Below are positions 2,938 through 32,908 of a stretch of 34,513 nt of DNA, piece by piece. The DNA is taken from IMG/VR virus record IMGVR_UViG_3300010400_000038, positions 1 through 34,513 of that record; one strand, given 5' to 3'. The notes beneath the pieces are model-generated. The model worked only from the letters and a program-made list of their open reading frames with translations, ran no database searches and was not told where the DNA came from. Numbering within the stretch: the stretch's first letter is position 1; each line of letters opens with the position of its first letter. The position numbers were made by a program, and so were the translations under genes. The DNA comes from a virus.

Positions 2938-3254
2938 CCGTCCACTTCCTCCAATTCGGCATGACGCCGTGCATGATGGAAGGGCCACCGAAAGATTGGC
3001 CCGCCGATCATAAATGGTCTGGTGACTGGCGCGAGGTGAACTGCCCGCAGTGCATCCACGGCAAGGACATCGCGCCCACCTTCGAGCTTTCCGAGGATGG
3101 CCAGAGCATTACCTGCCTGCGCTGTAAAATGACCAGCCACAACCCCAACGACGTGAAGAACCATTACTGCGGCCGGTGCCACGTCTCGCACGACGACATT
3201 TGGCCGCCCGCCCGGCGCTGGTGGGTCGAGCATCCCGATCCTGTCCGAGAATAA
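2934..3254 (+). CDS. Small zinc-ribbon-like protein
   Basis: A 106-residue protein with paired cysteines: CPQC at about 39-42, CLRC at about 62-65, then the motif NPNDVKNHYCGRCHVSH. The combination of a CxxC, a Pro-Asn-Asp-Val/Ile link and YCGxCHxxH is a recurrent phage/bacterial mini-protein pattern and would ligand one or two zinc ions. Coupled to the previous gene by ATGA. Function unknown; a nucleic-acid- or protein-binding adaptor is likely from the fold type only. Confidence 0.8.
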   Translation: MTVHFLQFGMTPCMMEGPPKDWPADHKWSGDWREVNCPQCIHGKDIAPTFELSEDGQSITCLRCKMTSHNPNDVKNHYCGRCHVSHDDIWPPARRWWVEHPDPVRE

Positions 3255-3256
3255 CT

Positions 3257-16495: not shown

Positions 16496-16541
16496 CCCAT
16501 TGTTGCGAAAATCGAAATCGGACAAATTAGGAATTGTAAAT

Positions 16542-16559
16542 TTGTGAAAAATTTCACAA
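16542..16559. promoter_or_regulatory. 18-bp palindrome, operator-like
   Basis: TTGTGAAA-AA-TTTCACAA: perfect 8-bp arms with a 2-bp centre, 175 bp upstream of the membrane-protein pair. It looks like a dimeric-repressor site or an element end. Confidence 0.45.
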
Positions 16560-16733
16560 GCGGACTTGACGAAAATTAAAACAGCATTTTAGGTCATTGA
16601 CAGATGGCGATAATGATTTCAACAATCCGCAATCAACCACGAAACTCCAGCGGAGAGGTCTGTTGCTGCACCTGTTCAGTCGAGTCGCCCTTTCACTCTT
16701 CCGAATTTCAGTTCCCGGCATTTATCAGTAACG

Positions 16734-16979
16734 ATGGCTGGCGTGGTGGTGCTGACCGCGATACTAAAGGCAGATCAGAAAGACATTCCAAAAATCATAG
16801 AAACTTTGTTTGGGGCAAGCGGTTTCATTACGCTGGGATGGTTCGTGGCAGGAATTATTCTGATCACGTCCGTCATGATGATTTGGTTTCTAATTCGAAA
16901 GTACGACAAGGAAATGGATCGGGTTTGCAAAGAACGCGACCGGCTCCAGGAATTCATTCTTAATCAAAAAAAGTCATGA
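16734..16979 (+). CDS. Small membrane protein with a cytoplasmic coiled-coil tail
   Basis: 81 residues: a first short hydrophobic segment (about 3-10), then a strong transmembrane segment (GWFVAGIILITSVMMIWFLI, about 35-55) and a charged tail (RKYDKEMDRVCKERDRLQEF) with heptad features. Stop overlaps the next ATG (ATGA). The two-gene unit has its own upstream region containing a palindrome and a possible promoter. AT-richer than the phage genes. Confidence 0.75.
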   Translation: MAGVVVLTAILKADQKDIPKIIETLFGASGFITLGWFVAGIILITSVMMIWFLIRKYDKEMDRVCKERDRLQEFILNQKKS

Positions 16980-17482
16980 ACACCGCGCCTCTCCTTGCAG
17001 CATTCATTATCGTGGTTTTTCTAAACATTCTTTATTGGAATGTTGTTCATCCAGTCGTTTTGCGCGCCTTGCTGTTTCGTATTTTTGCAAAGCGCGATCT
17101 CCTGCGCAATATGGGAATAAGCGGCGAGGTGGAAGTCGCGTCCGCAGAATACAAATACTTACAGGATTTTGTCTGCAAAACCATTGCATGGATTCCTAGA
17201 GTGAGTCTCGTAGAATTCTGCGTTTTCGCCGCGCAATCTAAAAATGCGCAAGACGTTGCACTAGAAAACTTTCACACGAGTGCCCCTGCGTCTTTGAAAG
17301 AACTTAAAAGGCAAGTTGTCCTCGACGCTTTTCGTATCATGCTAATCAATTCTCCATTTGTTGCTACAGTCGGTGGAATGTTTGGGTACCTTTCGTGGAT
17401 GGCGGACAAATTTCCTATCGGAAAGCTATTTCAAAGAACCGAGCAGTTCGTCAATACAATCGACCGCTATCAGCCTGCCTGA
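16976..17482 (+). CDS. Membrane-anchored protein of unknown function
   Basis: 168 residues. N-terminal hydrophobic segment (LLAAFIIVVFLNILYWNVV, about 5-23); two further hydrophobic stretches near 58-85 and 120-142 (RIMLINSPFVATVGGMFGYL). Translationally coupled to the small membrane protein. The fold is not recognised. A membrane pair in an island with HEPN- and HNH-like genes fits a host-interference or exclusion role, but that is inference. Confidence 0.75.
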   Translation: MNTAPLLAAFIIVVFLNILYWNVVHPVVLRALLFRIFAKRDLLRNMGISGEVEVASAEYKYLQDFVCKTIAWIPRVSLVEFCVFAAQSKNAQDVALENFHTSAPASLKELKRQVVLDAFRIMLINSPFVATVGGMFGYLSWMADKFPIGKLFQRTEQFVNTIDRYQPA

Positions 17483-17538
17483 TCTGGTTGATTTCTGAAC
17501 CGCACTTCCCGATCTTCCGCTCTGGTGAGCGTGATGAC

Positions 17539-17748
17539 TCAACGAATCTCGGACGCGGACGCGATGCCCCTGCCGTGGTTACGTTTGATCATCGCTTGGT
17601 ACATCATTTCCTCACCATTGAACGGTGCTCCAAGTGGTTCGTAGCCCTGTTCAAGCAATTCCTTCACTTTCTCTTCGAGGTCTAGGTGGGTTGCTTTTGC
17701 TCCGTGAAACGCCTGCGCTACAATTCTGTACTCAAGAAGTGATTCCAT
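17539..17748 (-). CDS. DUF1737-like small protein
   Basis: 69 residues from ATG 17748; an ATG at 17766 gives six more. The sequence EYRIVAQAFHGAKATHLDLE, EKVKELLEQGYEPLGAPFNG then MMYQAMIKR follows the DUF1737 pattern (E-Y-x-V, then a helix with EKVNELL-x-x-GW-x-PLGG, then YQAMVK), a small domain of unknown function. The only gene in the island on the minus strand; its C-terminus HGRGIASASEIR is a short tail. Confidence 0.7.
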   Translation of the reverse strand: MESLLEYRIVAQAFHGAKATHLDLEEKVKELLEQGYEPLGAPFNGEEMMYQAMIKRNHGRGIASASEIR

Positions 17749-17766
17749 TGCCTTGAGTAATCGCAT

Positions 17767-17993
17767 TACGCTTCTGGTTGTCAACGCGATAGCCGGGCAC
17801 AATCTGACAGGACATGACCAACTGGTGGGCACGGCGGTCAATCGGCTCGCCACGTCGCAACCTCCGTTTGTTATTCCAGTGCTGGCCAATTCCTGATTCA
17901 GCGTGCGTAACCACGAGGCGGCAGAACACCACTGCCGCCTTTTTGTATTGCAGCCCTTAGTGGATTTTGGATCAGTCGGGAACTCACTGACGT
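17767..17993. other. Intergenic region between DUF1737-like and PEGA-like genes
   Basis: 227 bp. The only clear object is the plus-strand terminator at 17917-17944. No confident small gene was found on either strand; the minus-strand frame running up to 17889 is more likely to be leader. Confidence 0.4.
17917..17944 (+). terminator. Strong plus-strand Rho-independent terminator
   Basis: GGCGGCAG (17917-17924), 7-nt loop, CTGCCGCC (17932-17939), then TTTTT. It lies 435 bp after the nearest plus-strand gene, with a minus-strand gene in between, so it may close a small RNA or the long transcript of the membrane pair. Confidence 0.7.
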
Positions 17994-18404
17994 ATGAGAT
18001 CCAACAAATTCATCATCCCACTCCTGATGTTGCTCGCCGGTTGCGCCACTGATCCAATCGGAACAGAACGTGGACCAGGTGGAACAATTGCCTACCTGAT
18101 CAATGTCGAGACAGAACAGGTAGGCTGTCGGATCGAAGTGAACGGGGATTACGTGGGTAAATCACCCATTGCCGTGAAAGTGTTTGGCGACCGAGATGGC
18201 ACGTTCCATAGCTTTGGCCAGCCGTACTGGACCATTATCGCCTATCCGATCCCGGGTAGTGGTGGATTGACTCAGACGAAAAAGTTTGGGACGGGCGGTT
18301 GGTTCACTTCGGATGACCGCATTCCAAAGACGATCTATTTCAACACCGGGCTGGAAGCAGTTAAACCACGCGAGACTATCGATCTCAACATCAAGAGTCA
18401 GTGA
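17994..18404 (+). CDS. PEGA-like lipoprotein
   Basis: 136 residues: MRSNKFIIPLLMLLAGCATD is a lipoprotein signal with lipobox LAGC (Cys17). A beta-rich body follows, including CRIEVNGDYVGKSPIAVKVF, which is the PEGA motif (V-x-V-N-G-x-x-V-G-x-x-P) of surface proteins, then a GTGGWFTSDDRIP part. Stop overlaps a GTG start (GTGA at 18401-18404), so it is coupled to the small membrane protein after it. Exposed on the outer membrane; possibly involved in surface modification. Confidence 0.85.
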   Translation: MRSNKFIIPLLMLLAGCATDPIGTERGPGGTIAYLINVETEQVGCRIEVNGDYVGKSPIAVKVFGDRDGTFHSFGQPYWTIIAYPIPGSGGLTQTKKFGTGGWFTSDDRIPKTIYFNTGLEAVKPRETIDLNIKSQ

Positions 18405-18563: not shown

Positions 18564-21500
18564 TTACTTGTCGTGAAGGTCGCGCAAGCGTGTCGCTCGG
18601 TCCCGCAATTCACGGCTCAATCGATCACGCTCGTTCACGTCCTTCTCGTTCAAAATTCTCCGGCTCATCTTGTGCAACGTCTCGATCGCTGGATCACTCG
18701 TCTTGCCATTCTTGCGCGCCCAATCAAACACCCATTGCACATCCCGCGCCGCCGTGCCGGGTGGTTCGACCACGTAGCCCGTGGACTTCAAGGCCGTGTC
18801 CAAGGGACCGCGCTGGCTGCGGCCGATCGAAGTCGCGATCTGTCCGATGCCACCATAGGAGTTGAGCAGGTAATCTACCTGCCTCGGATCGGCTTCCAGA
18901 CCAGCCGCGTTGATGACCCCGGCAATTCCCTTTCCCGTGGCGCTCGCGTTGTTCGTGCCTTTGCGCAATTCCAGTTTCAGATCGCGTTCCCAATTCGGAA
19001 TGATGTCGCGATTGCGGAATGTGTCGCGATTGAACTTCACTTCCAACAGGGATCGAATCGGGCCAGCCAATTCCACCGGGTCGCCGATGGGCAATGCCGC
19101 GTTGGCAGAACTTCCGCCGTAACCTTCCATCGCTCGTTTGTCACCTTCCATGCGGAGGATTCCGCGTTCTGCGCCGCCGGCCATCACTCCCAGTTCATGC
19201 GGCTTCGGAATCCGCACCCAGTACGGTCCCATTTTGAAGTTCCAAAAAAAGTCACGCAGGTAGGCCGGTTGCTGCAAGTATTCGTCCCACGTCGCCTTGT
19301 CGCGCCGGTTCCAGAGCATCATGGCCAGCGTCGGCAGCAAGACAAACAAGCCCCAGCGCATCGCAAAGCCAGCCGGGTTTTCCTTCATCGTCACGGTGGC
19401 CCGAGCCAACCCACGAACGCGCGCGTTTGAAAATGGCACCAGCCGATTGATCACGCGCATCACGGTCCCCGCCTTGGCGAAATCCAAAAGCCCTCGCGCT
19501 TCCCCGGCCGCATACAGCGCGGCGTTGTAATCGTCGTAGCCGAGTTCCTTCTTGCCGCGTTCGAACGCGCGCCGAAACTCCGCGATGCGCCCAAGTTTTT
19601 CGCTCATCTCCGAGAGATGGTCCCACGCGGTTTTTAATTTCAGCGGTGCAAGGATGATGTTTGTCGGGTCTTTGGTGAGTTGCCGCACCACTCGCTTTAA
19701 CTCACGGTTCCACACGTGCGCATCCACGATGTAATTGCCGAACTGGCCGCCACCGAACACTTCGTAGCGAGACAATTCCGCCTGCGAGTAGCCCTGCAAA
19801 ATATCCCACGGGCGTGAAGCGTTTCGGCTGTTCACGGAACGTTCCACCGTGTCACGCACCACGTTGCGCGCGATGAACTGCGGCCCGTGCGTAATCATGT
19901 AACGCGCCAGCCTTGACGGTATCGCAAGAATGTCCACAAAGGCGTGCGTGCCGAGTTCCCCGAGTCCTTTCAACGATTCGTAAATGGCCGGATCGAACTT
20001 CCAATAATCCGCTTTGCCATCCTTGAACACGCGGATTGTATTTTTATCCTCGGCTTTCGCGCGGCTGCCGAATTGATCGAAATCGATCAGGTTCGCGCCG
20101 TGCAACGAACGCACCTGGCTCAAGCTGTCTGTAAAGGTGCGCAGCGTGACATTGCGATGGGCCTCGCGCTGGATGGAATCGGTTTGCTCCAGCAGGTTGC
20201 TGTAAACATTGTCCAGTTCCAGCGTGCTCCCTTTGAACCGCTTCATCACGTCGCGCATCGTGCCGATGCTGCTTCCCCGCTGCGCCCGGTTCTGCACGTC
20301 GAACTCGTCTGAGAGCCGGTGCATGTCCACGTAAAATTCGTTCTTGTCGCGGATGTCCTGCGCCTGCTCCGTGCTTAACCGTCCTGCGTCCACCAACATC
20401 TGAATGTTCTGGTCTGCCCACAGCCGATAACGTCGCGCCGCTTCCTTCAGCCGGGTTTCGCGCGCCGGTTCCGATGCCACGCGGTTCAACAATTCCTGCG
20501 CCGCCTGTTTGTCGGACATGATGCCCGCGCCGATGCCGGACACATTCATTGTGCGCCCGATCTGCGCGCCCTTTTCCAGCGTGCGCTGCGCCACCATGAA
20601 CGCGCTCGCGTCCCGCATCTCCTGTTGCATCGTGGCTTTGTCCTTGGTGTCGAAGGCGCCCAAAAGCCACTTCATCGTCATCGGCTCATTCGTCACCGGA
20701 TCGATCAATCGCTTCGTTTCCAGTTCACCCTTCGCATTCGGCACCTGGTCGGGACGCAGCGGCACCAGCCCGTGCTCGAATTGATCGCTCATACGCGCGT
20801 CGTGCGTGGCCAGAAGGCGCGAGAGGAGTTCAAAATTTTGCTCCGGTTTGATCGGCAATCCACCGCGCAATTCCTGCGCCTGGTGAAAGGCTTTAACCGC
20901 GTAGTGGTAAGGGTCATCAAACCACAGGCGCAGTCGATCCACCGGATTGATCTCGAAACCAAATCCGCGCCCGGTCAGCCCGCGCCATAACCGTTCCGTC
21001 AACGTCGGCGGCTCCATGCGAATGTTCAGGCCCGCACGCACCAACGGATCTTCTCCCGCCCATGTTCGCACGTCCGTTCCGAAATCCTGAATCGCCTTCA
21101 ACGCCTCTGGCGGCAGGGTCTTCTCGAAATACGCGGCAAAGGTCGGCGCTTCCGCTTTCGCCATGGTCGGGTTGACTACGTAGGCACGAATGAATTCGGC
21201 GACTCCTTCCGCACGCCGGTAACGCAGTGTGCTCGTCGGCGTCACCGAGCCATGAATCCAGAACTTAGCCAGTTCCGTGTCATACGGTGAGCGCGTGCGC
21301 GGCTTGATCCACGGCTTGCCGATGCCGTAACGATCATCCGTCCAATGTCCCGCGAGTTCATGCGCGGCCGTGTCAAGATCGCCGGCAAACCGTTCCGTGG
21401 TCAGTGTCGAACCCGGCGCATACGTGCCGAGCGTGTTCATCTTCAAACGCCGCACTCGAATCGCCTTGCCGATCGCCGCTGAAAAATCCTCGATGATCTT

Positions 21501-24500
21501 GTAGGGCGACTTCGCGCCCCCACCGGAAATCGGATCGACTGGAATCCGCACGGGCGGCGGGGACGGTGGCGGCCCCGGCGGCGGAGGCGTCGCGCCCGGT
21601 TTTGTTCCACCGGTCGGCGTCTTGGCCGGCGGAGTCGATGTGCCTGCTGGCGTTGCCTTCGGTTGTTTCGGTGGCACCGCATCCGCTGGGCGAGTCCCGT
21701 TGAAGACGTGCCGCAGCCAATCCACTTTCTTGGCCGCAATGGCATCACCCTTCGCCTGCTGCGCGAACATCTCCTTCATGTACGGCTTCCATACCGTCAC
21801 ATCACTCGTCGCCTTGATCGCGTTCAGGATGGAATCGAAGTCACGCGCGGCAAATGCCTTCTCGAACAATTTCCGAAATGCTTCCGGCGTGTGAACTTGA
21901 TCGCGGTTCGGTCCACGTTCCAATTCCGTCGGCTCATCCTCGGGATAAATCTCCCGAAACTGCGCGTCGAGTTCATCGAATGCCGCCTCGTCACCGCCGC
22001 GCGCCCGTTCAAACGGATCACCTTTCGTTGCCGTCTGCGAAAGCTCCTCGTCTTCGTTTGTTGACTCTTCGGTCAACTTGGCTTCCGGCTTTGGAAACTG
22101 TTCCTCCAACTTCGCCAGCACGGCTTGCTGCTCGGCCAACTGCTTTTCCAGTTCCGAAAGTTTTGCTTCCTTGGCTTTGATGTCGCGTCCGGTCTGTTCC
22201 CATGTGCGCTTTGCGTCGATGAACTCGCGCATCGCCTTCGTGGTGGGCTTCTTGGCTTTTTGCCGTTCGTCCAGCGCGGCCTGTAAGTCGAGCGTCTTTT
22301 CGTATTCCTTGGGCAATGCCTCGCGGGCGATGTCGAGTGATTCGCGCAAGTCCGTGATCTTATCGTTCAACACCCGCACACCTTCACGCGCGACGTTTTC
22401 CGGCAACGCCGCTTCCAATTCATCCGCCGCGTCGTTCAGGTTCTTGCGCTGGCCCTCATCCATCACCAGTTCAGTGTCCGCCGCCTGCGCGCGCAACTTC
22501 TCTACTGCGGGGCGCTCGCCGTAAATTTTCTTGGCGTCGTCTTTGACCTTATCCAGCCGACCGCGATACGTCATCACGTCCCCGATGCGTGGTGCTTTCG
22601 CGATGCCGCTCTCGCCCGCCGTAGTGCTCAATCGACGCGCGTCCTTCAATACCTGCTCAATGGCGGCTTTGTGATTTCTGACCGTGAACGTCCCGTCGCC
22701 GGGAATGTGGATTTTAATACTACCCTCGGAGGTGGCCCATTGACCTTGCTTCATTCCAGGCTTGAAAGCCTTGTTCCGTGACTGCTCAAGCCATTCGTCA
22801 TGCGTGGGCGCCTTCTTCAACGCCGATTCCAACTTTTCAATCAACTCGGATTTGATCTCTTTCGCTGGTCGCGTGCCTTCAGTCTTTGCCACTTCCGAAA
22901 CCTGTTCCTGCATCTTGGCTTCGGCGTTCGTTGCTTCTACCGTGGGCTGTTTCGGTCGCTTCGTGATCTCGGCGATGGCCTTCGCGCGCTCGCCGGCAAA
23001 ATCGTAGCCCGGTTTGGCGTAAACCGTTTTCTCAGTCGGATACGGCCCGCCTTTGCCTTTCACAAGCACGCCGTTCTTCACCGCTTTATTGAGCGCGGCC
23101 AATTCCCCAGACTTCAATTGCCCGATCTGCGGCACCGTTTCCGCCAGCGCGCGCTCGACAACGGGATGGTGTTTGGAGGCGGACTTTTGAGCTGTTGCAA
23201 AAGTTTCCGGCGTGAATCGATCCTGCCTTGGAATTGGAAGAGGCTCCGTGTTTACTGCGCGGGCATTTGGAAATTGTTTCGTAACCGCACCGTGAATGTC
23301 CTGAGGCTTCGATGGATCGTTTAACTCCGCGAGAAGGTTTCCATCCTTGTCGAACGCCTGAACATTCGTGTGTCCACGTCCCGTTTCACGAATCACTGTC
23401 GCATATTTGATCCCGGACTCCTGTTGAGTTCCGGGCGTTTTTGTCGATTGGCCATCGACTATCGGCGATGCCTTCGGCACTTCCGCCACACCCACTTCAC
23501 CAGCCACAGGAGCAGGCTGCCCAGCCACATCGCCGGTTGGAGCCGGTAATGTTCCAACGGGCGCAGGCGTCTCGGCAGCGGCGAGTGTTGGCGTCTTCGG
23601 CGCATTGGGTTCAATAGGCTGAACGTTTGCCGTTCTTTCCTCCAACACCTTTTCCGCTGGAACAACTTTCGTCTCTCCCCCTGGCACGGCCGCCTTGTGT
23701 GCTTCCGCCGCTTTCGCGATCGCTTCCGCCGTCGGTGGCACCACCTCGTCGAGCACGGGCACGCCGTTCTTCGTCGTCTGCACCACCGTGTTCCCCACCG
23801 GCTCCGGCTTGGTGCTTTGGCTCATCCCCAAAAGCGTGCCGTCGAAGTCCTTGCCTTCAGCGGCAGCCAACACAGCTTCGCGTGTCGTCTTGGCCGGATT
23901 GAATATCGCCAGTCCGTGCTTCGTATCCACGGCACTGAGCGTCGGCGGCACATCGTGCAGTCCGGGAATCAACATCGGCAGCGGCGATCCCGGCGTGATC
24001 AACGTCACCGCCTTCGTGCTTGCCGGGTCTAAAGTCACTTCCAACTGCTTATGGATGGCGTCGAGCTTTTCCGGAACAGGCGCAGCGGTTTTGGTTTCCG
24101 CCACGCCCGTCGTCGGGCTTAACACATCTTCCGTCCGCCCTTTTTCCTTCCCTTGCTTTCCTGAATCATCGCCGCTCACCTCCTTCAACACCTCCGCTGT
24201 CGCAGGTAAATTATTTTCCTCGGCCACTTTCACTTCCGCCGCTTTTGGTGCTTCCGGTGTTCCTTGTGGTTTGGGTGGCGTCAACGCCGTGTAGGCATCA
24301 AGGATTTCCTGAAACTTCGCCGTCGCTTCCGGCGTGTTGCCGGCCACGTCCGGATGAAATTGCTTGGCCAGATCCCGGAACGCGCTCTTGATGTCTGCCG
24401 GCGTCGCGTCCGGGTCCAGTCCGAGAGTCGAAAGATGTTCCTCGCGCGTTGGCCCGCGTGGCGTGGTCAGCGGTGCCGCCTCTCCGCGCAAAGCGTGCGT

Positions 24501-25163
24501 GCCCAGCGCCGCCGTCAATGGCGCGCTCAGTGCCGCGCTCGTCCAGAGTTTCGCCAGCTTCGCCGGGTCGCGTTGGTCTTCCGGCTTTCCATACTCCGCG
24601 CCGAGGGCTTGAGCGGTATCCACCGCGAGATTTTTCCCGGTGTGCAACGCAAACCACGCCGACAACGCGCGCGACAGTCCCGTGCCCTTCAGGATTCCAG
24701 CCACACCAAAGGTTCCGAGCGACAGCGGCGAAGTCAGCCCGGAGAGAAACTCATCTGCGCCCTGACGCAACCCGAGCATCTGTTTCTCCAGCGGTGTGCC
24801 CTCTTGCTGAATGCGCTGCACTTCCGCCACTTTTTCCGGGTCGTTGCCGCCGTAGCCGAAGAACTTGCCGCCCGTCGGCGTCGCTTCCAGAATGGGCTTG
24901 TTCAGAATCGCAGTGGAACCGAGTTGCCGCGTCGTTTCCAAGGCTGGCTTTTCTAACGCGAGCGCCAGGCGATCGGAACCGGCGGGGACGAACTGCGCTT
25001 TCCCGCCGCGGCGTGGCACGTCGGCAAAGACATCTTCCGGCAAGGTTACTTCCGCCCGTGGAACGTCAGAGAAAACGTCTTCCGGGATTGTCACGGCTGC
25101 TCTCGGAACATCCGCAAAGACATCTTCCGGCAGCGTGTTGGTTATTTCCTGAGTCTCGGGCAT
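18564..25163 (-). CDS. Giant polyvalent virion/ejection-type protein with J-domain
   Basis: 2199 residues. Residues 11-55 are three near-identical 15-residue repeats ((L/I)PEDVF(A/S)DVPR). A J-domain follows at about 240-295 with HPD at 270-272 (LAKQFHPD). Long Pro/Glu/Lys linkers run to about residue 900, then a coiled coil (about 945-1025), a Pro-rich hinge (about 1165-1210) and a zincin-like HELAGH at 1268-1273 (HExxxH spacing). The C-terminal region (about 1740-1990, with ARYMITHGPQFIARNVVRD and RLVPFSNARVRGLARATVTM) resembles the LPD38-type region of large polyvalent phage proteins. Such proteins are packaged and ejected into the host. Upstream and downstream genes are virion-type on the same strand, with a 10 bp gap. 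DnaK binding and protease activity are predicted, not shown. Confidence 0.9.
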   Translation of the reverse strand: MPETQEITNTLPEDVFADVPRAAVTIPEDVFSDVPRAEVTLPEDVFADVPRRGGKAQFVPAGSDRLALALEKPALETTRQLGSTAILNKPILEATPTGGKFFGYGGNDPEKVAEVQRIQQEGTPLEKQMLGLRQGADEFLSGLTSPLSLGTFGVAGILKGTGLSRALSAWFALHTGKNLAVDTAQALGAEYGKPEDQRDPAKLAKLWTSAALSAPLTAALGTHALRGEAAPLTTPRGPTREEHLSTLGLDPDATPADIKSAFRDLAKQFHPDVAGNTPEATAKFQEILDAYTALTPPKPQGTPEAPKAAEVKVAEENNLPATAEVLKEVSGDDSGKQGKEKGRTEDVLSPTTGVAETKTAAPVPEKLDAIHKQLEVTLDPASTKAVTLITPGSPLPMLIPGLHDVPPTLSAVDTKHGLAIFNPAKTTREAVLAAAEGKDFDGTLLGMSQSTKPEPVGNTVVQTTKNGVPVLDEVVPPTAEAIAKAAEAHKAAVPGGETKVVPAEKVLEERTANVQPIEPNAPKTPTLAAAETPAPVGTLPAPTGDVAGQPAPVAGEVGVAEVPKASPIVDGQSTKTPGTQQESGIKYATVIRETGRGHTNVQAFDKDGNLLAELNDPSKPQDIHGAVTKQFPNARAVNTEPLPIPRQDRFTPETFATAQKSASKHHPVVERALAETVPQIGQLKSGELAALNKAVKNGVLVKGKGGPYPTEKTVYAKPGYDFAGERAKAIAEITKRPKQPTVEATNAEAKMQEQVSEVAKTEGTRPAKEIKSELIEKLESALKKAPTHDEWLEQSRNKAFKPGMKQGQWATSEGSIKIHIPGDGTFTVRNHKAAIEQVLKDARRLSTTAGESGIAKAPRIGDVMTYRGRLDKVKDDAKKIYGERPAVEKLRAQAADTELVMDEGQRKNLNDAADELEAALPENVAREGVRVLNDKITDLRESLDIAREALPKEYEKTLDLQAALDERQKAKKPTTKAMREFIDAKRTWEQTGRDIKAKEAKLSELEKQLAEQQAVLAKLEEQFPKPEAKLTEESTNEDEELSQTATKGDPFERARGGDEAAFDELDAQFREIYPEDEPTELERGPNRDQVHTPEAFRKLFEKAFAARDFDSILNAIKATSDVTVWKPYMKEMFAQQAKGDAIAAKKVDWLRHVFNGTRPADAVPPKQPKATPAGTSTPPAKTPTGGTKPGATPPPPGPPPSPPPVRIPVDPISGGGAKSPYKIIEDFSAAIGKAIRVRRLKMNTLGTYAPGSTLTTERFAGDLDTAAHELAGHWTDDRYGIGKPWIKPRTRSPYDTELAKFWIHGSVTPTSTLRYRRAEGVAEFIRAYVVNPTMAKAEAPTFAAYFEKTLPPEALKAIQDFGTDVRTWAGEDPLVRAGLNIRMEPPTLTERLWRGLTGRGFGFEINPVDRLRLWFDDPYHYAVKAFHQAQELRGGLPIKPEQNFELLSRLLATHDARMSDQFEHGLVPLRPDQVPNAKGELETKRLIDPVTNEPMTMKWLLGAFDTKDKATMQQEMRDASAFMVAQRTLEKGAQIGRTMNVSGIGAGIMSDKQAAQELLNRVASEPARETRLKEAARRYRLWADQNIQMLVDAGRLSTEQAQDIRDKNEFYVDMHRLSDEFDVQNRAQRGSSIGTMRDVMKRFKGSTLELDNVYSNLLEQTDSIQREAHRNVTLRTFTDSLSQVRSLHGANLIDFDQFGSRAKAEDKNTIRVFKDGKADYWKFDPAIYESLKGLGELGTHAFVDILAIPSRLARYMITHGPQFIARNVVRDTVERSVNSRNASRPWDILQGYSQAELSRYEVFGGGQFGNYIVDAHVWNRELKRVVRQLTKDPTNIILAPLKLKTAWDHLSEMSEKLGRIAEFRRAFERGKKELGYDDYNAALYAAGEARGLLDFAKAGTVMRVINRLVPFSNARVRGLARATVTMKENPAGFAMRWGLFVLLPTLAMMLWNRRDKATWDEYLQQPAYLRDFFWNFKMGPYWVRIPKPHELGVMAGGAERGILRMEGDKRAMEGYGGSSANAALPIGDPVELAGPIRSLLEVKFNRDTFRNRDIIPNWERDLKLELRKGTNNASATGKGIAGVINAAGLEADPRQVDYLLNSYGGIGQIATSIGRSQRGPLDTALKSTGYVVEPPGTAARDVQWVFDWARKNGKTSDPAIETLHKMSRRILNEKDVNERDRLSRELRDRATRLRDLHDK
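24999..25133 (-). repeat. Three 45-bp tandem repeats encoding 15-residue units
   Basis: Residues 11-25, 26-40 and 41-55 of the giant protein each read (L/I)PEDVF(A/S)DVPR plus four to five variable residues. The DNA copies differ at several bases, so it is an old duplication under protein selection. Confidence 0.85.
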
Positions 25164-25173
25164 GGCTCAAGAC

Positions 25174-26853
25174 TCACTTCTTCTTGTCCTGAAGTGTGTA
25201 GCCGTTGGCCTCCAGTGTAGCCTTCAACTTCGCGCGCACAGCGGTCGGGTTTGCCGGTGGCACAAAGACTCCCGCGCTGTTGGTGTAACCCGCGATGGCG
25301 CGTTCCGCTTGTTTCATCAGCGCGTCGGCATCCAGGTGGCTCGCCAGCTTGGGAAGGTTGTTCGGCGCGGTGGCTGCCGTCGCCTCGGCTGTGGGCGCAT
25401 TCGTCGCAGAACCCTTGGCTGTTTCTGGTTTGGTCGCCGGTGCGCTCCCCTTGTTCATCCAGTTCGTCGAAAGTTTCACCCGTTCGTCCCACAACTTTTG
25501 CAACTGCGCGCGCGACGCCAGGGCCGCCTTGGTCGCGCTCGTCTTGTCCGTGTCCGTGGCACTCGTGCTCTGCGCGATCTTCATCTGCGCGCTCAACTCC
25601 TTCTGCACCGCCTCGATCTGTGATTTATTGTTTTCCTGCTGGGCCTTTACTTCCGCCGGCACTCGTTCGTTGATCGCGCTCGCGTTATGAACTTTGCGAA
25701 TCTTTCCCGTCTCCGGATCGGAATCCACCAACGCTTCATACGTCGGTTTGCCGTTCTCATCGTAGAATGTGTGGACGCCGAAATTGCCGCCTTCACTCCC
25801 GGCGGGCGGCAGTCCGTAAGTCGTTTTGCCAGTGGCATCCACCTTTGTTGGCACCAGTTTCGCCGCCTTCGCTTTCTCCGCCGCCTGCATCTCCACGTAC
25901 TTCTGTCCGGTGTGCAGGATGGCCAGTGCCGCCGGGCTGGGTGTGCCGTCCTTGTTCTGCGCGGCCTCACCCAGAGCACGGACCGCCACATGGAATTCGT
26001 CCGGCAATGCCAGGAAGCTGTCGTTGAATCGCTTCGTCAAATCCAACGCCGCCTTCGCCGCCACTGAATTGTTTTCAATCTGCTTCTGGCGCAGCGTGAT
26101 CGATTCGCCGCGTTGCAGGATCTGGCTCTTCTCCGCCAGCGCATTCTGGAACTGCGGATACATCACGCCCTCGGGATTGGCCGCCGTGATTTTGCTCAGC
26201 TCATCGAACGTCGTCGCCTGCATCACTTTGCCGATCGCATCGAGCGCATTCGTCGCGCGCCAGCTCGGGGCCGGCGGCGCCGTCATCCACGTCGGCTTCT
26301 CGTTACCGTCCCAGCGCGATCCCGGCGTCGGCGTAATGTTTCCCGTGCCGTTGCGATCGTAAGCCATGCCCACTTCCTCGTTGGGCACCACCGTCCCCGG
26401 CCGATCCGGCACAAAAACTTCCGGGCCACGTTCCCCCACGATCGCCGGTTCACCCACCGCCGGCCGTCCGCCATCCGCAAATCCCAGAAAGCCGAACGTC
26501 CTCGGCTTGAATTGCTGATCGTAGCCTGGGCTGTACGGCGTCGCGGGCGCGTTGGGTGCCGTCACCGGAGGCGTGCTGATCGGTGGGGCCGTGATCGGCG
26601 CCGCGTTCCACGGCTTCGTCGGATCGGGATGGAGAATGTCAAACTGCCGCCGGTCCTCGATATACTTGTCGCGAAACTGCTGCGCGTCCTGCGCCATCTT
26701 ATCCTTGGTCAGCGCATTTTGTTTCGCGGCCTGGAATGATTGCGCGAACGAGCGGCCAATCTCGGCATTGGCCGGCGCCGCTGCCAGCGCGTAGCTTTGC
26801 GGCGTAAACATCTGCCAGCCGGGGAGCGTCGAATTGCCAAACAGGTCAGACAT
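25174..26853 (-). CDS. Tape-measure-motif virion protein
   Basis: 559 residues from ATG 26853; SD-like AAGG lies about eight bases upstream, inside the end of the HNH gene. At about residues 128-158 is a GGRPAVGEPAIVGERGPEVF, VPDRPGTVVPN block, familiar from the C-terminal end of tail tape-measure proteins. Here it is near the N-terminus, so the protein may be a rearranged tape-measure or an internal core protein. The rest is helical, Ala/Gln/Lys-rich (coiled-coil-like), with Pro-rich insert at about 95-125. Ends in KKK. Situated between 231-residue and 2199-residue virion-type genes. Confidence 0.85.
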   Translation of the reverse strand: MSDLFGNSTLPGWQMFTPQSYALAAAPANAEIGRSFAQSFQAAKQNALTKDKMAQDAQQFRDKYIEDRRQFDILHPDPTKPWNAAPITAPPISTPPVTAPNAPATPYSPGYDQQFKPRTFGFLGFADGGRPAVGEPAIVGERGPEVFVPDRPGTVVPNEEVGMAYDRNGTGNITPTPGSRWDGNEKPTWMTAPPAPSWRATNALDAIGKVMQATTFDELSKITAANPEGVMYPQFQNALAEKSQILQRGESITLRQKQIENNSVAAKAALDLTKRFNDSFLALPDEFHVAVRALGEAAQNKDGTPSPAALAILHTGQKYVEMQAAEKAKAAKLVPTKVDATGKTTYGLPPAGSEGGNFGVHTFYDENGKPTYEALVDSDPETGKIRKVHNASAINERVPAEVKAQQENNKSQIEAVQKELSAQMKIAQSTSATDTDKTSATKAALASRAQLQKLWDERVKLSTNWMNKGSAPATKPETAKGSATNAPTAEATAATAPNNLPKLASHLDADALMKQAERAIAGYTNSAGVFVPPANPTAVRAKLKATLEANGYTLQDKKK

Positions 26854-27247
26854 ATCGATCCTTACCCTTAATCGCTCGTAGATTTCTGCGGTATTCGTTT
26901 CGGCACGTCGGATGCCAATGAGAACGATTACCTTCACGACGGCGCTTTAGATTCTCTGGCGAGTCATACTTATGGCAGTAGCAGCACTTTCTAAATTCGG
27001 CGTTACCACACTCCGAAAAGGCTCGCTGACTGGCATGATATTGCATGTGCGCGGCGTGAGATTGGAACACTTGCAAATTATCCATTCTGTTATCTCGTGT
27101 GTCGTGGTTGATGTGATGCACGACTTCTCCGTCCTCTATCGCTCTTCCTAAAATCTTTTCAGCGATCAGAATGTGTTCATAAACGTGCCCATTCGCGTTG
27201 GCGCGGTGATGTCCGTGGCACAGGGTCAATTTGTATTTTGCGCTCAT
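26846..27247 (-). CDS. HNH endonuclease (homing-type), inserted between virion genes
   Basis: 133 residues. HNH core EVVHHINHDTRDNRMDNLQV (42-61: His44-His45, Asn57) with a further His near 64-67, and a CCYCHKYDS Cys cluster (about 88-96) plus Cys114 that would bind zinc. Homing endonucleases of this HNH_3-like kind act on DNA and spread by double-strand breaks in virion genes. It overlaps its upstream neighbour by ATGA (27244-27247) and the downstream start by 8 bp. Slightly AT-richer than the flanking genes. Confidence 0.88.
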   Translation of the reverse strand: MSAKYKLTLCHGHHRANANGHVYEHILIAEKILGRAIEDGEVVHHINHDTRDNRMDNLQVFQSHAAHMQYHASQRAFSECGNAEFRKCCYCHKYDSPENLKRRREGNRSHWHPTCRNEYRRNLRAIKGKDRYV

Positions 27248-27939
27248 ATCGCGCCTCCCGCGCCACCGGCCGCCGAACCGGCCACACTCGTCGCCAGTCC
27301 GGTGATGCCTTGCCCCAGATCGCTCAATCCGTTGGACAGCTTCGTCCCGAACGAATACTGCGAGTCCAGTTGGTTTTGCATCCAGTCGCGTTGAAACTTT
27401 CCCGTCGTGTTGAACTCGGCCGCCGCCATGCGCTGCGCCGGGGTCACAAACATCGTCGAGACATCGAACCGCGGCGCCACCGTGTTTTCCCGCGCCGTCG
27501 CGATCCAGCGTGTGCCGGCGTCGATGCCTTTGCTGATCAAATCGAGGCTGCTCAATCCCAGATCCCGCGCCACCAGGTTCTTCGCCATGCCGCTCCCGCC
27601 AAATCCACCCGTGAGCGATCGGTAGGCCGCGCTCCGCCCGATGTTGTCCGAAACGTCCTGCGGCAATTCCCCGGAGAGGAACGAATTGATCTTCCCGCCA
27701 ATGCTCGAAACCATCTTGTGATAACCCGGCACCGCCGTTTCCAGCATCGAGTCGAGCTGTTGCTGGTTGAAGGCGTTCACCTGCCCGCCCAGCTTGGAAA
27801 GGTCCGCGAAGTTGGAAATGTTTCCCGCCACGGCTTTCTGTTGCTCGGTCGTGGTGTCAATCGGTTTGAACTTGGGCACCTTCGGTTCCGTCGCGAAGAG
27901 CGAACCGAGAAAGCCAAGTCCTGTAATGTCGCCGGGCAT
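27244..27939 (-). CDS. Internal virion-type protein
   Basis: 231 residues. Opens MPGDITGLGFLGSLFA, then a helical, Gln/Asn-rich centre with NAFNQQQLDSMLETAVPGYH, and a Gly/Ala-rich C-terminus (SVAGSAAGGAGGAI). The GLGFLGSLF opening and Gly-rich tail resemble small internal core/ejection proteins of podovirus-like phages. Stop is in the ATGA overlap with the HNH gene. Start is three bases after the upstream stop. Family not named. Confidence 0.75.
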   Translation of the reverse strand: MPGDITGLGFLGSLFATEPKVPKFKPIDTTTEQQKAVAGNISNFADLSKLGGQVNAFNQQQLDSMLETAVPGYHKMVSSIGGKINSFLSGELPQDVSDNIGRSAAYRSLTGGFGGSGMAKNLVARDLGLSSLDLISKGIDAGTRWIATARENTVAPRFDVSTMFVTPAQRMAAAEFNTTGKFQRDWMQNQLDSQYSFGTKLSNGLSDLGQGITGLATSVAGSAAGGAGGAI

Positions 27940-27942
27940 AAG

Positions 27943-28938
27943 TTAAATAGCGTTTTCGATTTCCCCCGCGCCGAAGCAGGTCGGTTGCACGCGCATCTGC
28001 ATCACCGGGCCATCGCCCAGGTGTGACGACAACTCATCGTTCAGCAACGACACCGCGAATTTCTCGGCCGTGTAACCCTCCGCAAAGTTTCGATTGTCGA
28101 AGTGAACCAGCGCGCGCACCTCCTCTTCCAGCGCATCAAGGTTTCCAATCAGGATGAAATCGTTTTCGTTCGCCACGTTGTAGAAACGCAGCTTCGCCGC
28201 CACGTCCACCGCCGCGCTCTCGCAACTGCCGCTATGGATCTGGCTCAGGCCCGGGAGAAAACTGCGCCGGTAATTCGGCAGCGTTTCACCCGGTTCATAA
28301 TAGGCCAGCGCGCGCACGTTGGCCGCCGTCATGGTGTTGTACTCGTAGAGGCGGATCGCGCCATTCGTCGTCGGCTTGATCACGCGCACCAGCTTGGAGA
28401 AATACTTTGTGCTCAGCGTTTGCGTCGCGTTCGTCGCCGGGATGGAAACTTTCTCGCCATCGATCCACGCCGAGCCGTCGAGCGTGCGAATCCACTGTGC
28501 GTTGTTGTCGTAGCCTTGCAGGTTGATGTACTTCCCGCTGCCCTCGCTCACGTCGGCATAGACTTTGATCTTTCGATCCGTCGCGCCGCCTGTGATGTCA
28601 TCAAACGCGCAGACGTTCCCCCGGTCGACCAGCTTCAACCCGCTGTTCGCATCCTGAATCCCCGGGCCTGATTCCAGGAATTCGTACCACGAGTTGCGCA
28701 CCGTGATCGGCCGCGAACACACCGCCGCCATCTCGATCGTTTCAATCTGGCGCGGCCACGTGATGCAATCGCTGTTCACGCAGATGCGATAATTCTGGTA
28801 GGTGCCCACCCATTTCCCTTTGGGCAGCAAGCGGCGCACGGCGCGGTTGATGTACTTCAGCACTCGCGTGTCCGAGGCGCACAGGTTCGCCGCACTGGCC
28901 ATGCGGTCCCGCGCTTCAGCTACAGTCAGGAGGCTCAT
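27943..28938 (-). CDS. Adaptor/neck-like virion protein
   Basis: 331 residues with MSLLTVAEARDRMASAANLC, RVLKYINRAVRRLLPKGKW, WPRQIETIEMAAVC and an alpha/beta middle. The opening helix with R-x-x-x-x-I-N-x-A-x-x-x-L, the early W motif and the position before tail proteins resemble head-tail adaptor (tail tubular A / gp11-like) proteins of short-tailed phages. C-terminus ends DGPVMQMRVQPTCFGAGE. Its leader carries a TGTTA-N4-TAACA palindrome at 28961-28974. The call rests on general architecture only. Confidence 0.75.
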   Translation of the reverse strand: MSLLTVAEARDRMASAANLCASDTRVLKYINRAVRRLLPKGKWVGTYQNYRICVNSDCITWPRQIETIEMAAVCSRPITVRNSWYEFLESGPGIQDANSGLKLVDRGNVCAFDDITGGATDRKIKVYADVSEGSGKYINLQGYDNNAQWIRTLDGSAWIDGEKVSIPATNATQTLSTKYFSKLVRVIKPTTNGAIRLYEYNTMTAANVRALAYYEPGETLPNYRRSFLPGLSQIHSGSCESAAVDVAAKLRFYNVANENDFILIGNLDALEEEVRALVHFDNRNFAEGYTAEKFAVSLLNDELSSHLGDGPVMQMRVQPTCFGAGEIENAI

Positions 28939-29759: not shown

Positions 29760-31178
29760 TTAAGAAACACTCAATGACCCGGGCGAGGAAGGGCATCCCG
29801 TGGCCGTCCGTGTGTAGTCGCCGATCGGGCTTAACCCGACAGCCTTCGTTCCTTCCCAGAGCACTTCCGAAAATCCACCCACCGACGCCGAGATGCTCAA
29901 ATACCAGTGCGAGCCTGGAATCAGCCCAAGCGTCACGAAGTAATAGAACGGGTTGAAATAAAGCGCCTCGCTGTTGATATATCCGCGCCAGTTGCAACCA
30001 CCAGAGCTGACCAGTTGTCCCGTCACGTTCCCGCCCGGATTGGGATAGGAAGAGGCGAAGCAAAACATTTCCAAGGTGACGGGGTAGCTCAATTGCAGCG
30101 ATCCCGGCACACTTCCCGGGCAATCCACGGGAGGGACACATCCGTCGCTCACCTCGGCGGAATCTTCGTCATTGCCGCAATCGTTTTCGGCTGTCACCAC
30201 GATCGTGTAGGGAATACTCGGCAACACTACCGGCGCGCTGCCGCTCAAGGCCGGTTCCACCACTTCGCCGTCCACCGTCATGGACGAAGGCACCGTGCCG
30301 CTCAGGTGCCACGTCACCGTCACCGTGTCACCGGTGCAAGCCGACTCGGGCGATACCGTCACCGAGACAAACTCCGGCGGCTCGCAGGGCGGAGGCGGGT
30401 CCGTGCAAATCGTGTCGATCAAACGCCGGATCACCGTCCCGTCCGCCAGCGTGATTTGCAGCAGGAAATATCCCGCCAGGGCCGTGAACGGTTGCCCCCA
30501 CATCCGCCATTCATAAGTCCCCGCCGCCACCGTCCCCAGCGTCGTTTGATAGGCGGAAAATAATTGCGTCGGCCCGGATTGATCGATCAACACCAGTGGA
30601 TAGGTATGGAACGGCACGCCCAGCGGCTCGATATATTCCTTCGTGGACCATGATTGTCCCGAGTCCCACACGCCGTCGGCGTCGGTCTGCAAAATCGTGA
30701 TGTCCAGGATCTCGATGTCGTTCAACAACGTCATCTGGAGCACGAACTGGTAATCGTTGGCCTGCCCGTTGGCCGCGAACTCGTCGAACGTCCCCACCTT
30801 GTCGCCCGTGTCGCACAGGTAGGCGAAGGCAAAACTGCTGTCCCCGGTTTCCTGATACGTCGCCGTGCTGATCGCCCCGGCCGCGCATCCGCTCACGATC
30901 GCCACCGCCTTGACCACTTCCACCAGCGTATCAAAAAGGAATGGCCCGCTGTAGAGGTTCGAGTCCGCCGTCGGGTCGCTCCCGTCCAGCGTGTAATAGA
31001 TCGAGGCGCCCGCCACGTTCGTCGTCAGGACCACCAGCGTCGGCAGCAACACAAACGATCCGTCCGGTGGATTGATCGTCACCGTCGCCGTCGGGCAACC
31101 CACGGGCGGGATCACGTCCGCGTCCGCGCGATAGTCCATCGCGGGTGGGCAGCATGATTCTGTGCGGCACGTGCTCAT
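29760..31178 (-). CDS. Virion-type protein with chitobiase-like and Ig-like domains
   Basis: 472 residues from ATG 31178 (ATGA with the beta-propeller-like gene upstream). Cys-rich short N-terminus (CRTESCCPP), then a CHB_HEX_C-like domain at about 30-105 (TTNVAGASIYYTLDGSDPTA is diagnostic), a beta-sandwich middle, and an Ig-like domain near 275-345 with CTGDTVTVTWHLSGTVPSSM. Carbohydrate-binding or surface adhesion is plausible, as in many fibre-associated proteins. The end has GCNWRGYINSEALYFNP. Confidence 0.85.
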   Translation of the reverse strand: MSTCRTESCCPPAMDYRADADVIPPVGCPTATVTINPPDGSFVLLPTLVVLTTNVAGASIYYTLDGSDPTADSNLYSGPFLFDTLVEVVKAVAIVSGCAAGAISTATYQETGDSSFAFAYLCDTGDKVGTFDEFAANGQANDYQFVLQMTLLNDIEILDITILQTDADGVWDSGQSWSTKEYIEPLGVPFHTYPLVLIDQSGPTQLFSAYQTTLGTVAAGTYEWRMWGQPFTALAGYFLLQITLADGTVIRRLIDTICTDPPPPCEPPEFVSVTVSPESACTGDTVTVTWHLSGTVPSSMTVDGEVVEPALSGSAPVVLPSIPYTIVVTAENDCGNDEDSAEVSDGCVPPVDCPGSVPGSLQLSYPVTLEMFCFASSYPNPGGNVTGQLVSSGGCNWRGYINSEALYFNPFYYFVTLGLIPGSHWYLSISASVGGFSEVLWEGTKAVGLSPIGDYTRTATGCPSSPGSLSVS

Positions 31179-32908
31179 TGGTCGTCGCACCCGTCAATTT
31201 CTCCCAGCGGTTCCTCCTGCTCGATCGCGCTCAGGCGCAACGTCCGCAGGGTCGCCCCGCCCGTGATCGTGATGCGTGGCTGAAACTCGTAGCCCAGGCG
31301 CGACGGCTTGTTGTCGCTCTCCGAGCAATCATCCGGCGGTTGGGGAAAACGTTTCTTCGCGCGGTATTGCGGTTGTACCGGTGCCGGGCAGCCTGAGCAA
31401 TTCGCCGTCGTCGCGCACGCGCTGCCCACGTGCCAGTCAAACCAGCACGGCGCCTGGTCAGGACGAAATTGCACCGTCCAATCCACCTGTCCGCGCATCG
31501 CCTCCAATGACACGTCGCCGCCTTCCAGTTTCTTCAGCGACTGCACTGTGCTCCCGCCCTTGAGCAACGCCGGTCCTTCCACCGTCCATTCGATCCGCTT
31601 GTTGCCGTTGTCCAGATACCCGGTCTTCAGCAATTCCCAAAGTTCGTTGCGCCCGTCGCTCGCGCGCCGGTGCATCACAAAGCATCGCTCCGTCCCGGAA
31701 AAATCGCCCGCGATCAGCGCCGTGAAATTCAGCCCCAGCCAAAGCCCGTCGTAAGCCGGTGGCAGCTTTTCCGCCATGCCGCTGATCAGATCGAAATCGA
31801 GCACGGCCATCCCGCGATGGTAGCAACCATTCGTCAACGGCGTCTGGTGGCACAACACCAGCAACCGGTTGTCGAACAACGTCGCGTTGCAGAAGTCGAG
31901 CAGCCGATCCGTGTCGAACGACAACGTGCGTCCAATCTCATTGGAGAGCGGCGTCGTGGCCCATGATTGTTGGAACTCCCGCCGCGTCATGGCCACCGAT
32001 CCCAAACCATCCGGGCGCCGGTAAAACATATCGCCATTCACCAGCACGACCGATTCCTGGCTCGTCGCGCCCTTGCCCAGCAATACCACCGACTGAAACA
32101 AAATCTGTTTCCACGTCTCGCGCTGTTCCCCGATGCGCGCCGACGCCGCGCCAAAGCGCGTGAACACCATCAAGTCACCCTGCCCCGTGCCGCGGTCGAG
32201 TTGCGCGATGATCTTCACCGCCGTGATCTCACCCGGGAACGGCACCGTGATGTTGCCGCCTTCGTTCAGGTAATTTTCTTCCGTGAACTGGATCACTTCC
32301 GTCCCGCCATGCACGATGTCGCCCACGATGTAGGCCCGCCGATGCGGCAGCGTCACCACCAGCCGCCCCAGCCCGTAGGCCATCGCCGTCCCCACCGGCA
32401 CTTCATAGCTCGGCGATCCAATGCTCGATCGGCGCATCGACGCGCCGTCGTAGATCAATGGGATCGATTGCCCGTCCTGGATGATCAGGTATTGCTCGGC
32501 CTGCACCATCCACACATGCCGGCGGATGCTCGGGTTGTCGTCGCCCGGAATACCGATGTTCGAAACATTCACCGCGTTCACGCGCGACGGATCGATCCGG
32601 TAAATCCGGCCGCCGATCGACACGATCAGGAACGTCCCGTAAGGCGTCGTGTAGAACTCGCGCCCCTGCACGTTATGGTTCCGGAACCAATGGCAGTCCT
32701 CGCCTGACTCGAAATGCAGTTGGATTTTTTTGAAGGGCGGCCGGTTGGATGGATAACCGCCGCGCACCGTCGTATTGATCAGCCGTGCCGCTTTGCGCGC
32801 GCTGAACGGCTCCCCGCTCCCGAGCAACGACGGCGACACCCCTTCATCCACCCCGTCTTGCAGGATGGTGAATCCATCAACCAATCGTTTGCGCTCCACT
32901 TCCGCCAT
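31175..32908 (-). CDS. Tail tubular-B-like / stabilisation beta-propeller protein
   Basis: 577 residues. The order INTTVRGGYPSNRPPFKKIQ, GTFLIVSIGGRIYRIDPSR, VWMVQAEQYLIIQDGQSIPL and FTRFGAASARIGEQRETW, with later FCNATLFDNRLLVLCHQTPL, is a repeat-rich beta-propeller as in short-tail nozzle/stabilisation proteins. A Cys-rich C-terminal part (SACATTANCSGCPAPVQP) may bind metal or form disulfides. It lies upstream of fibre-like and Ig-like genes. Family name from architecture only. Confidence 0.82.
   Translation of the reverse strand: MAEVERKRLVDGFTILQDGVDEGVSPSLLGSGEPFSARKAARLINTTVRGGYPSNRPPFKKIQLHFESGEDCHWFRNHNVQGREFYTTPYGTFLIVSIGGRIYRIDPSRVNAVNVSNIGIPGDDNPSIRRHVWMVQAEQYLIIQDGQSIPLIYDGASMRRSSIGSPSYEVPVGTAMAYGLGRLVVTLPHRRAYIVGDIVHGGTEVIQFTEENYLNEGGNITVPFPGEITAVKIIAQLDRGTGQGDLMVFTRFGAASARIGEQRETWKQILFQSVVLLGKGATSQESVVLVNGDMFYRRPDGLGSVAMTRREFQQSWATTPLSNEIGRTLSFDTDRLLDFCNATLFDNRLLVLCHQTPLTNGCYHRGMAVLDFDLISGMAEKLPPAYDGLWLGLNFTALIAGDFSGTERCFVMHRRASDGRNELWELLKTGYLDNGNKRIEWTVEGPALLKGGSTVQSLKKLEGGDVSLEAMRGQVDWTVQFRPDQAPCWFDWHVGSACATTANCSGCPAPVQPQYRAKKRFPQPPDDCSESDNKPSRLGYEFQPRITITGGATLRTLRLSAIEQEEPLGEIDGCDDQ

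What the first reader, a model, noticed from the sequence alone, without database searches (positions are those of the whole stretch)
18564..25163. A 2199-residue ejected-type protein combining a J-domain, a zincin-like motif and an LPD-like C-terminus
The J-domain HPD, coiled coil, Pro-rich hinge, HELAGH motif and the LPD38-like end can each be read from the sequence. Large polyvalent proteins are known to be packaged and injected. A built-in J-domain would recruit host DnaK/Hsp70 at entry, which is a distinctive strategy: the phage may use host chaperones to pull or refold the giant protein.
Basis: partly seen in the sequence, partly recalled or inferred. Interest (0 to 1): 0.8.

Follow-up and report, generated by a model that had tools for sequence, protein, structure and literature searches.

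The report
J-domain on a giant phage ejection protein
A metagenomic phage carries a 2199-residue protein of the kind packed in the virion and pushed into the host at infection; unlike its relatives it carries an added co-chaperone (J-) domain of the type that recruits the host chaperone DnaK, an accessory that may help the phage use host chaperones but is clearly not needed for ejecting such giants in general.

Summary
The gene is on the minus strand (18564-25163). Residues 240-296 are a real J-domain: Pfam E=1.7e-13, AlphaFold pLDDT 96-98, 1 A match to solved J-domains, HPD at 270-272. Residues 1219-1353 are a zincin-like fold with HELAGH, a HEXXXH variant that more distant relatives have as HEXXH. 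The C-terminus is LPD38 (1960-2113). Gene order and relatives place it as the last and largest of three putative internal virion proteins of a short-tailed-phage module (T7 gp16 position); an LPD38 giant of phage JC1 is proven in virions.

None of 154 relatives has a J-domain, including five at about 70% identity over the C-terminal half. Their N-terminal halves are swapped freely and carry other cargo (transglycosylase, nucleases, ParB, Zeta kinase). So the J-domain is an accessory gain, not a requirement for pulling in or refolding such proteins. Binding of host DnaK is likely (phage RB43 Rki is a precedent), but when (assembly, entry, or as a host-directed effector) is open. No J-domain in a polyvalent or ejection protein was found in the literature held here. 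Verdict: new variant of a known kind.

The parts
18564..25163 (-). 2199-aa giant ejection-type (polyvalent) protein
   Evidence: open frame; LPD38 Pfam match; 154 distinct relatives
25011..25130 (-). N-terminal triple repeat, residues 12-51, unit [LI]PEDVF[AS]DVPRAxVT, period 15
   Evidence: p=0.0005 against shuffles; short N-terminal duplications with other motifs in about half of relatives
24459..24779 (-). hydrophobic Ala/Gly-rich helical module, residues 129-235
   Evidence: hydropathy maximum; segment 131-225 shared with the giant protein of L002 (37% id, E=2e-9)
24276..24446 (-). J-domain, residues 240-296
   Evidence: Pfam, PDB sequence hits, AlphaFold/Foldseek
24348..24356 (-). HPD motif, residues 270-272
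   Evidence: sequence; invariant in 26 phage J-domains
22464..24266 (-). residues 300-900: low-complexity linker and unassigned region
   Evidence: composition; no Pfam match; no conservation in close relatives
21954..22466 (-). residues 900-1070: charged, putative coiled coil
   Evidence: composition; weak V_ATPase_I match 948-1044, E=0.96
21714..22046 (-). residues 1040-1150: start of the part shared with close relatives (DPFERARGGDEAAFDELDAQF...)
   Evidence: 67-70% identity from about 1040 on
21528..21686 (-). Pro-rich hinge, residues 1160-1212
   Evidence: sequence; composition
21105..21509 (-). zincin-like metallopeptidase domain, residues 1219-1353
   Evidence: alignment with invariant H, E, H and downstream E/D; model resembles lethal factor catalytic domain, Z 8.3 over 121 aa, and ArdC, Z 5.6
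21345..21362 (-). HELAGH motif (HEXXXH variant), residues 1268-1273
   Evidence: one residue inserted relative to HEXXH of more distant relatives
18579..20606 (-). conserved C-terminal module, residues 1520-2195, with LPD38 at 1960-2113
   Evidence: Pfam LPD38 E=1.7e-21; phrog_9854 E=6.6e-44; BFVD structural matches E down to 3e-28
25174..26937 (-). 587-aa protein in the position of the middle (tunnel) internal virion protein
   Evidence: position; its stop codon lies just before the start of the giant gene; counterparts of other sequence in relatives
27244..27939 (-). 231-aa protein in the position of the small internal virion protein
   Evidence: position; weak similarity to the gene in the same place in L217 and L219 (E about 1e-4)
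27943..28938 (-). putative tail tubular protein A-like / connector protein
   Evidence: position and homologues in the same place in L216-L220 (24-30% id)
31175..32908 (-). putative tail tubular protein B-like / stabilisation protein
   Evidence: homologues in the same place in L216, L218-L220; the gene in that place in L222 matches phrog_511 internal virion protein and phrog_3287 virion structural protein

Best explanation
This is the largest (T7 gp16-position) internal virion protein of a short-tailed phage, from the LPD38 group of polyvalent proteins. Its C-terminal half (zincin-like domain plus LPD38 module) is the conserved ejection part; its N-terminal half is an exchangeable cargo region into which this phage has put a J-domain, just behind a hydrophobic module. 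The J-domain most likely docks host DnaK-ATP through its HPD loop, triggers ATP hydrolysis and so loads DnaK onto nearby polypeptide: first of all onto the protein's own long unstructured linker (in cis), and secondarily diverting DnaK from its normal work. In the producing cell this would keep the giant chain soluble until it is packed; after delivery it could help the chain refold or act on the host stress response. Shown: fold, HPD, architecture, gene position, absence from relatives. Inferred: DnaK binding, the cis action and its timing, which the evidence does not separate.
For: J-fold and HPD; 21 of 26 columns conserved in phage J-domains are kept. Gene position as last of three putative internal virion proteins (phages HTVC204P, HTVC034P and ct8d5349). 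LPD38 giant gp69 of JC1 found in virions with 51 unique peptides (PMC9144972). N-terminal halves swapped between phages with 67-70% identical C-terminal halves and carrying other cargo. A stand-alone phage J-protein, Rki of RB43, binds DnaK and stabilises sigma32 (PMC3486835). The protein is made in the cytoplasm, so the J-domain meets DnaK at least there (inference).
Against: DnaK-contact positions of E. coli DnaJ are partly lost: R27 to D264, R36 to V273, N37 to A274, K48 to Q285; CbpA also has V after HPD. No relative carries the domain, so its conservation cannot be tested; it could be a recent, neutral or decaying acquisition. Host and its DnaK unknown. In relatives the N-terminal third carries peptidoglycan hydrolases (11-115, 269-357, 325-459, 428-509), so residues 240-296 may stay in the periplasm at entry.
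Confidence: 0.5

Rival explanations
1. Entry motor: the J-domain behind the membrane module sits at the inner-membrane exit, loads DnaK on the emerging unfolded chain and so pulls in and refolds the giant protein, as Pam18 or Sec63 do for Hsp70 in organelles.
For: J-domain directly follows a hydrophobic module; N4 vRNAP is thought to be unfolded during ejection and to refold in the cytoplasm (PMC12633501); T7 gp16 can refold from a partly unfolded state (PMC8954989).
Against: No other LPD38 giant, even at about 70% identity and similar length, has a J-domain, so no such motor is needed in general. In T7 the N-terminal part stays in the periplasm, where there is no DnaK.
Confidence: 0.15
2. Host-directed effector: the delivered J-domain diverts DnaK in the newly infected cell, for instance stabilising sigma32 as Rki does, or blocking a DnaJ/DnaK-dependent defence such as bNACHT25.
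For: The N-terminal region of relatives is a cargo region with effectors (Zeta kinase, PBECR nucleases, ddrB-ParB); Rki precedent (PMC3486835); bNACHT25 needs DnaJ-DnaK cooperation (PMC12169576).
Against: A virion delivers few copies against abundant DnaK (established knowledge); Rki is made in the cell, not injected; the effectors found in relatives lie further C-terminal (634-963) than the J-domain.
Confidence: 0.2
3. A J-like domain kept as a plain structural or binding module, or a decaying recent acquisition, without a DnaK function.
For: Unique to one metagenomic contig; several DnaK-contact residues and helix IV lost.
Against: HPD, the hydrophobic core and 21 of 26 conserved columns are intact; GC content matches the rest of the gene, which is uninterrupted.
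Confidence: 0.15

Closest known systems
LPD38 phage-type polyvalent proteins (Pfam PF18857; Iyer et al. 2017, PMC5512222; e.g. DarB-like gp69 of Burkholderia phage JC1)
   Same: C-terminal LPD38 module, zincin-like domain, exchangeable multi-domain N-terminal half, place at the end of the structural module
   Different: J-domain, which neither the main text of that paper names nor any of 154 relatives carries; HEXXXH instead of HEXXH
T7 gp16 and other largest ejection proteins of podophages (PMC8954989)
   Same: last and largest of three internal proteins; hydrophobic segments; weak structural similarity of model residues 222-543 to a chain of mature T7 core proteins (Z 5.3)
   Different: no recognisable transglycosylase; no significant sequence match; zincin and J-domain not described in gp16
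N4 virion RNA polymerase gp50 (PMC12633501)
   Same: giant ejected protein with a putative membrane N-terminal domain and an HExxH domain ahead of a large C-terminal domain
   Different: no RNA polymerase domain here; J-domain instead
Phage J-domain proteins, e.g. Rki of RB43 (PMC3486835) and small J-proteins in IMG/VR contigs
   Same: J-domain with HPD; about 34-54% identity over the domain to the IMG/VR ones
   Different: those are separate proteins; all of the best-matching 80 loci hold the domain in frames of at most 382 aa
DnaJ, CbpA and other host J-domain proteins
   Same: helices I-III and HPD superpose at about 1 A
   Different: no helix IV, G/F region or client-binding domain; some DnaK-contact residues changed

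Membership tests
J-domain proteins | helix II - HPD loop - helix III fold | tested here: met
J-domain proteins | basic DnaK-facing surface of helix II and around HPD | tested here: inconclusive
   K259 and R263 keep the charge of DnaJ R22 and K26; R27 to D264, R36 to V273, K48 to Q285 changed
J-domain proteins | binding and stimulation of DnaK/Hsp70 | not testable with these tools
   needs biochemistry or genetics
LPD38 phage-type polyvalent proteins | LPD38 above Pfam's gathering score | tested here: met
   77.6 bits against 27
LPD38 phage-type polyvalent proteins | several unrelated domains in one chain | tested here: met
   J-domain, zincin, LPD38
LPD38 phage-type polyvalent proteins | packaged in the virion and delivered | not testable with these tools
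   only by precedent: JC1 gp69 in virions (PMC9144972)
zincin-like metallopeptidases of polyvalent proteins | helix, small sheet and two C-terminal helices bearing the motif | tested here: met
zincin-like metallopeptidases of polyvalent proteins | HEXXH or HEXXXH plus a downstream Glu | tested here: met
   HELAGH (HEXXXH form, a class described in PMC5512222) and the EGVAE helix, invariant in 25 sequences
zincin-like metallopeptidases of polyvalent proteins | peptidase activity | not testable with these tools
gp16-type (largest) ejection proteins | encoded last after two smaller internal virion proteins | tested here: met
   window order and relatives; the two smaller proteins are assigned mainly by position
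gp16-type (largest) ejection proteins | sequence or structural homology to T7 gp16 | tested here: inconclusive
   no significant sequence match; Z 5.3 over 193 residues to a T7 core chain
gp16-type (largest) ejection proteins | membrane-inserting segments | tested here: inconclusive
   19-mers at 140-158 and 1932-1950 with mean hydropathy 1.3 and 1.6 only

The most novel reading that the evidence does not exclude
A phage carries its own membrane-tethered J-domain into the cell so that host DnaK forms an import motor at the inner-membrane exit, drawing in and refolding a giant protein: a bacterial-virus analogue of the Pam18/Hsp70 motor of mitochondria.
Probability: 0.12. Interest if true: 0.85.

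Novelty: new variant of a known kind. Interest (0 to 1): 0.5.

Why it matters
How 2000-4000-residue proteins pass a tail channel of about 35 A and become folded on the other side is an open question for N4-like, T7-like and DarB-like phages. A natural variant with a J-domain built in makes the role of host Hsp70 in that process directly testable by one HPD mutation, and the J-less sister proteins with 70% identical C-terminal halves are ready-made controls. If instead the domain is an injected effector, it adds DnaK to the list of host targets hit by polyvalent proteins.

Tried and rejected
(1) J-domain shared by the clade: rejected; 0 of 154 relatives, of which 135 have a complete 5' end in the stretch held, and none in prophage-type loci L299-L309. 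(3) Hydrophobic-module sequences of L020, L242 and L002 misaligned to the J-domain in A5; dropped from the alignment used for folding. (4) Topology rule (peptidoglycan hydrolases before, cytoplasmic cargo after the hydrophobic module): not clean; hydrolases lie on both sides (SLT at 11-115 in L246, at 269-357 in L072), so not used as an argument. (5) Sequence search of the C-terminal half against solved structures: only a weak lethal factor match (E=0.24). (6) Foldseek of the 1001-residue model against PDB gave nothing with E below 1; the second look gave the zincin match. (7) Close relatives by the tail-tubular-A-like gene: none found by pattern. (8) L218's stand-alone J-protein (213 aa, domain at its C-terminus) as donor: not pursued; it did not appear among the 30 J-proteins most similar to our domain.

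Full report
What is there. The stretch 18564-25163 holds one open frame of 2199 codons on the minus strand. It starts about 10 bases after the stop of the preceding gene on the same strand. The window is the whole of an IMG/VR virus record of 34513 bases, host unknown; relatives with about 70% identical C-terminal halves lie on contigs of up to 58.8 kb, so the window is probably a fragment.

J-domain. Pfam DnaJ matches residues 245-298 with E=1.7e-13, far above the curated cut-off; phmmer finds DnaJ chains of the PDB over 240-300. A model of residues 96-310 made with 26 phage J-domains has pLDDT 96-98 over the domain, with helix I at about 240-246, helix II at 255-269, HPD at 270-272 and helix III at 278-294. 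The best Foldseek matches are J-domain structures; those confined to the domain superpose 52-53 residues at 0.9-1.1 A, including the J-domain bound to DnaK in 5nro. Of 26 columns conserved in phage J-domains, 21 are kept; of the positions by which E. coli DnaJ touches DnaK (recalled from the literature, not tested), K26 is R, K46, F47 and L57 are kept, while R27 is D, R36 is V, N37 is A and K48 is Q. Helix IV is replaced by a Pro-rich stretch. The domain is therefore a real J-domain, with a DnaK surface that is plausible but changed.

Zincin and LPD38. The motif HELAGH lies at residues 1268-1273. In the closest relatives it is the same, in more distant ones it is HEXXH, and the following acidic residues are invariant. 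The model of residues 1195-2195 (pLDDT 77.6) places it on a helix after a small sheet; residues 1219-1353 resemble the catalytic domain of anthrax lethal factor (Z 8.3, 121 residues, 3.3 A) and the antirestriction protein ArdC (Z 5.6). Iyer et al. linked the zincins of polyvalent proteins to the same structure and described a HEXXXH group (PMC5512222). LPD38 matches 1960-2113 with E=1.7e-21, and predicted structures of other LPD38 giants match the C-terminal model with E down to 3e-28. One chain of the mature T7 core (9jyy_I) appears with Z 5.3 over 193 residues, which is suggestive only.

Place in the virion. Upstream on the same strand stand, in order, a tail-tubular-B-like protein, fibre-like proteins, a tail-tubular-A-like protein, a 231-aa protein, an inserted HNH gene, a 587-aa protein and the giant. 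Relatives have the same order, and in annotated podophages HTVC204P, HTVC034P and ct8d5349 the homologous gene follows tail-tubular or stabilisation proteins and a protein annotated as internal virion protein. In T7 the three internal proteins form the channel through the envelope, with gp16 reaching from periplasm to cytoplasm (PMC8954989). For an LPD38 giant, gp69 of phage JC1 (4515 aa), virion mass spectrometry found 51 unique peptides (PMC9144972). Packaging of the present protein is an inference from these.

The J-domain is an accessory. Scans gave 154 distinct relatives, 135 of them with a complete 5' end in the stretch held. None has a J-domain. L020/L216, L217, L218, L219 and L220/L242 are 67-70% identical over residues about 1040-2195 but have different N-terminal parts and lengths from 1567 to 2255 aa. 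The N-terminal parts of the group carry transglycosylases, lysozyme, PBECR nucleases, ddrB-ParB, helicase, pyrophosphatase and Zeta kinase domains. Conversely, the 80 best J-domain loci found in IMG/VR hold frames of at most 382 aa, the PHROG families that match the J-domain are all at most 363 positions long, and the annotated J-domain hits in isolated phages that were looked at are small separate genes. Text searches found no paper that puts a J-domain in a polyvalent or ejection protein, though J-proteins of jumbo phages are known and predicted to recruit Hsp70 for folding and assembly (PMC7824862).

How it most likely works. A J-domain fused to long unstructured segments would load DnaK onto its own chain. 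That is certain to be possible in the producing cell, where the protein is made next to DnaK, and possible at entry only if residues 240-296 reach the cytoplasm. Relatives keep peptidoglycan hydrolases in the N-terminal third and T7 gp16-N stays in the periplasm, which argues for caution. The close relatives without a J-domain show that neither assembly nor ejection of such a protein depends on one. The third mode, an injected effector acting on host DnaK, has a precedent in Rki of RB43, which binds DnaK, stabilises sigma32 and helps growth (PMC3486835), and a possible reward in defence systems that depend on DnaJ-DnaK (PMC12169576). I put the cis action with open timing first, the effector second, and the entry motor third.

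Limits. One metagenomic contig, no host, no second J-bearing homologue, capped searches of viral contigs, no metagenome scan. The DnaK step and the presence in virions are untested.

Noticed in passing
window 25011-25130 (-), and N-termini of relatives L002-L281: Giant LPD38 proteins very often begin with two or three tandem copies of a short motif that differs between lineages (PEDVFADVP x3 here; DVFDEVA x2 in L020; WVDVP x3 in L058; SLFDLYSxPLPGV x2 in L040; AGFxxxEI x2 in many). 47 of 100 dereplicated N-termini have such a duplication at p<=0.01, against 11 of 200 other ORF N-termini and 12 of 441 internal stretches. It looks like a multivalent docking or packaging motif; no paper found in one search.
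   Followed up: partly
L020/L216-L220, L242: Abrupt mosaic switch near residue 1040: about 70% identity after it, little or none before it between most pairs; L217 and L219 are 96% identical just after the switch and about 30% before it.
   Followed up: partly
IMGVR_UViG_3300021289_000002 (L218 record), L282:1250-1888 (-): A close relative carries a separate 213-aa frame with a J-domain at its C-terminus (E=1.1e-11), and a second weaker one at contig 37774-37869.
   Followed up: partly
window 26846-27247 (-): 133-aa HNH-type gene (homing endonuclease-like by sequence) between the two smaller putative internal virion protein genes; similar HNH-like genes in L220 and L260.
   Followed up: no
window 15472-16434 (+): 320-aa transposase-like reading frame (weak PHROG transposase match, E=8e-4), with lower GC nearby (0.47 at 16501-18000): possible insertion element or non-structural island in the middle of the record.
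   Followed up: no
window 25174-26937 (-): The 587-aa putative internal protein contains the motif ADGGRPAVGEPAIVGERGPEVFVPDRPGTVVPN, which resembles the ends of tape-measure proteins (weak match to a tape-measure PHROG, E=0.05).
   Followed up: no
window 3176-3907 (+): Response-regulator-like protein with a receiver-like part and LuxR-type HTH by sequence (PHROG matches to sigma factor / transcriptional regulator), unusual in a small phage.
   Followed up: no
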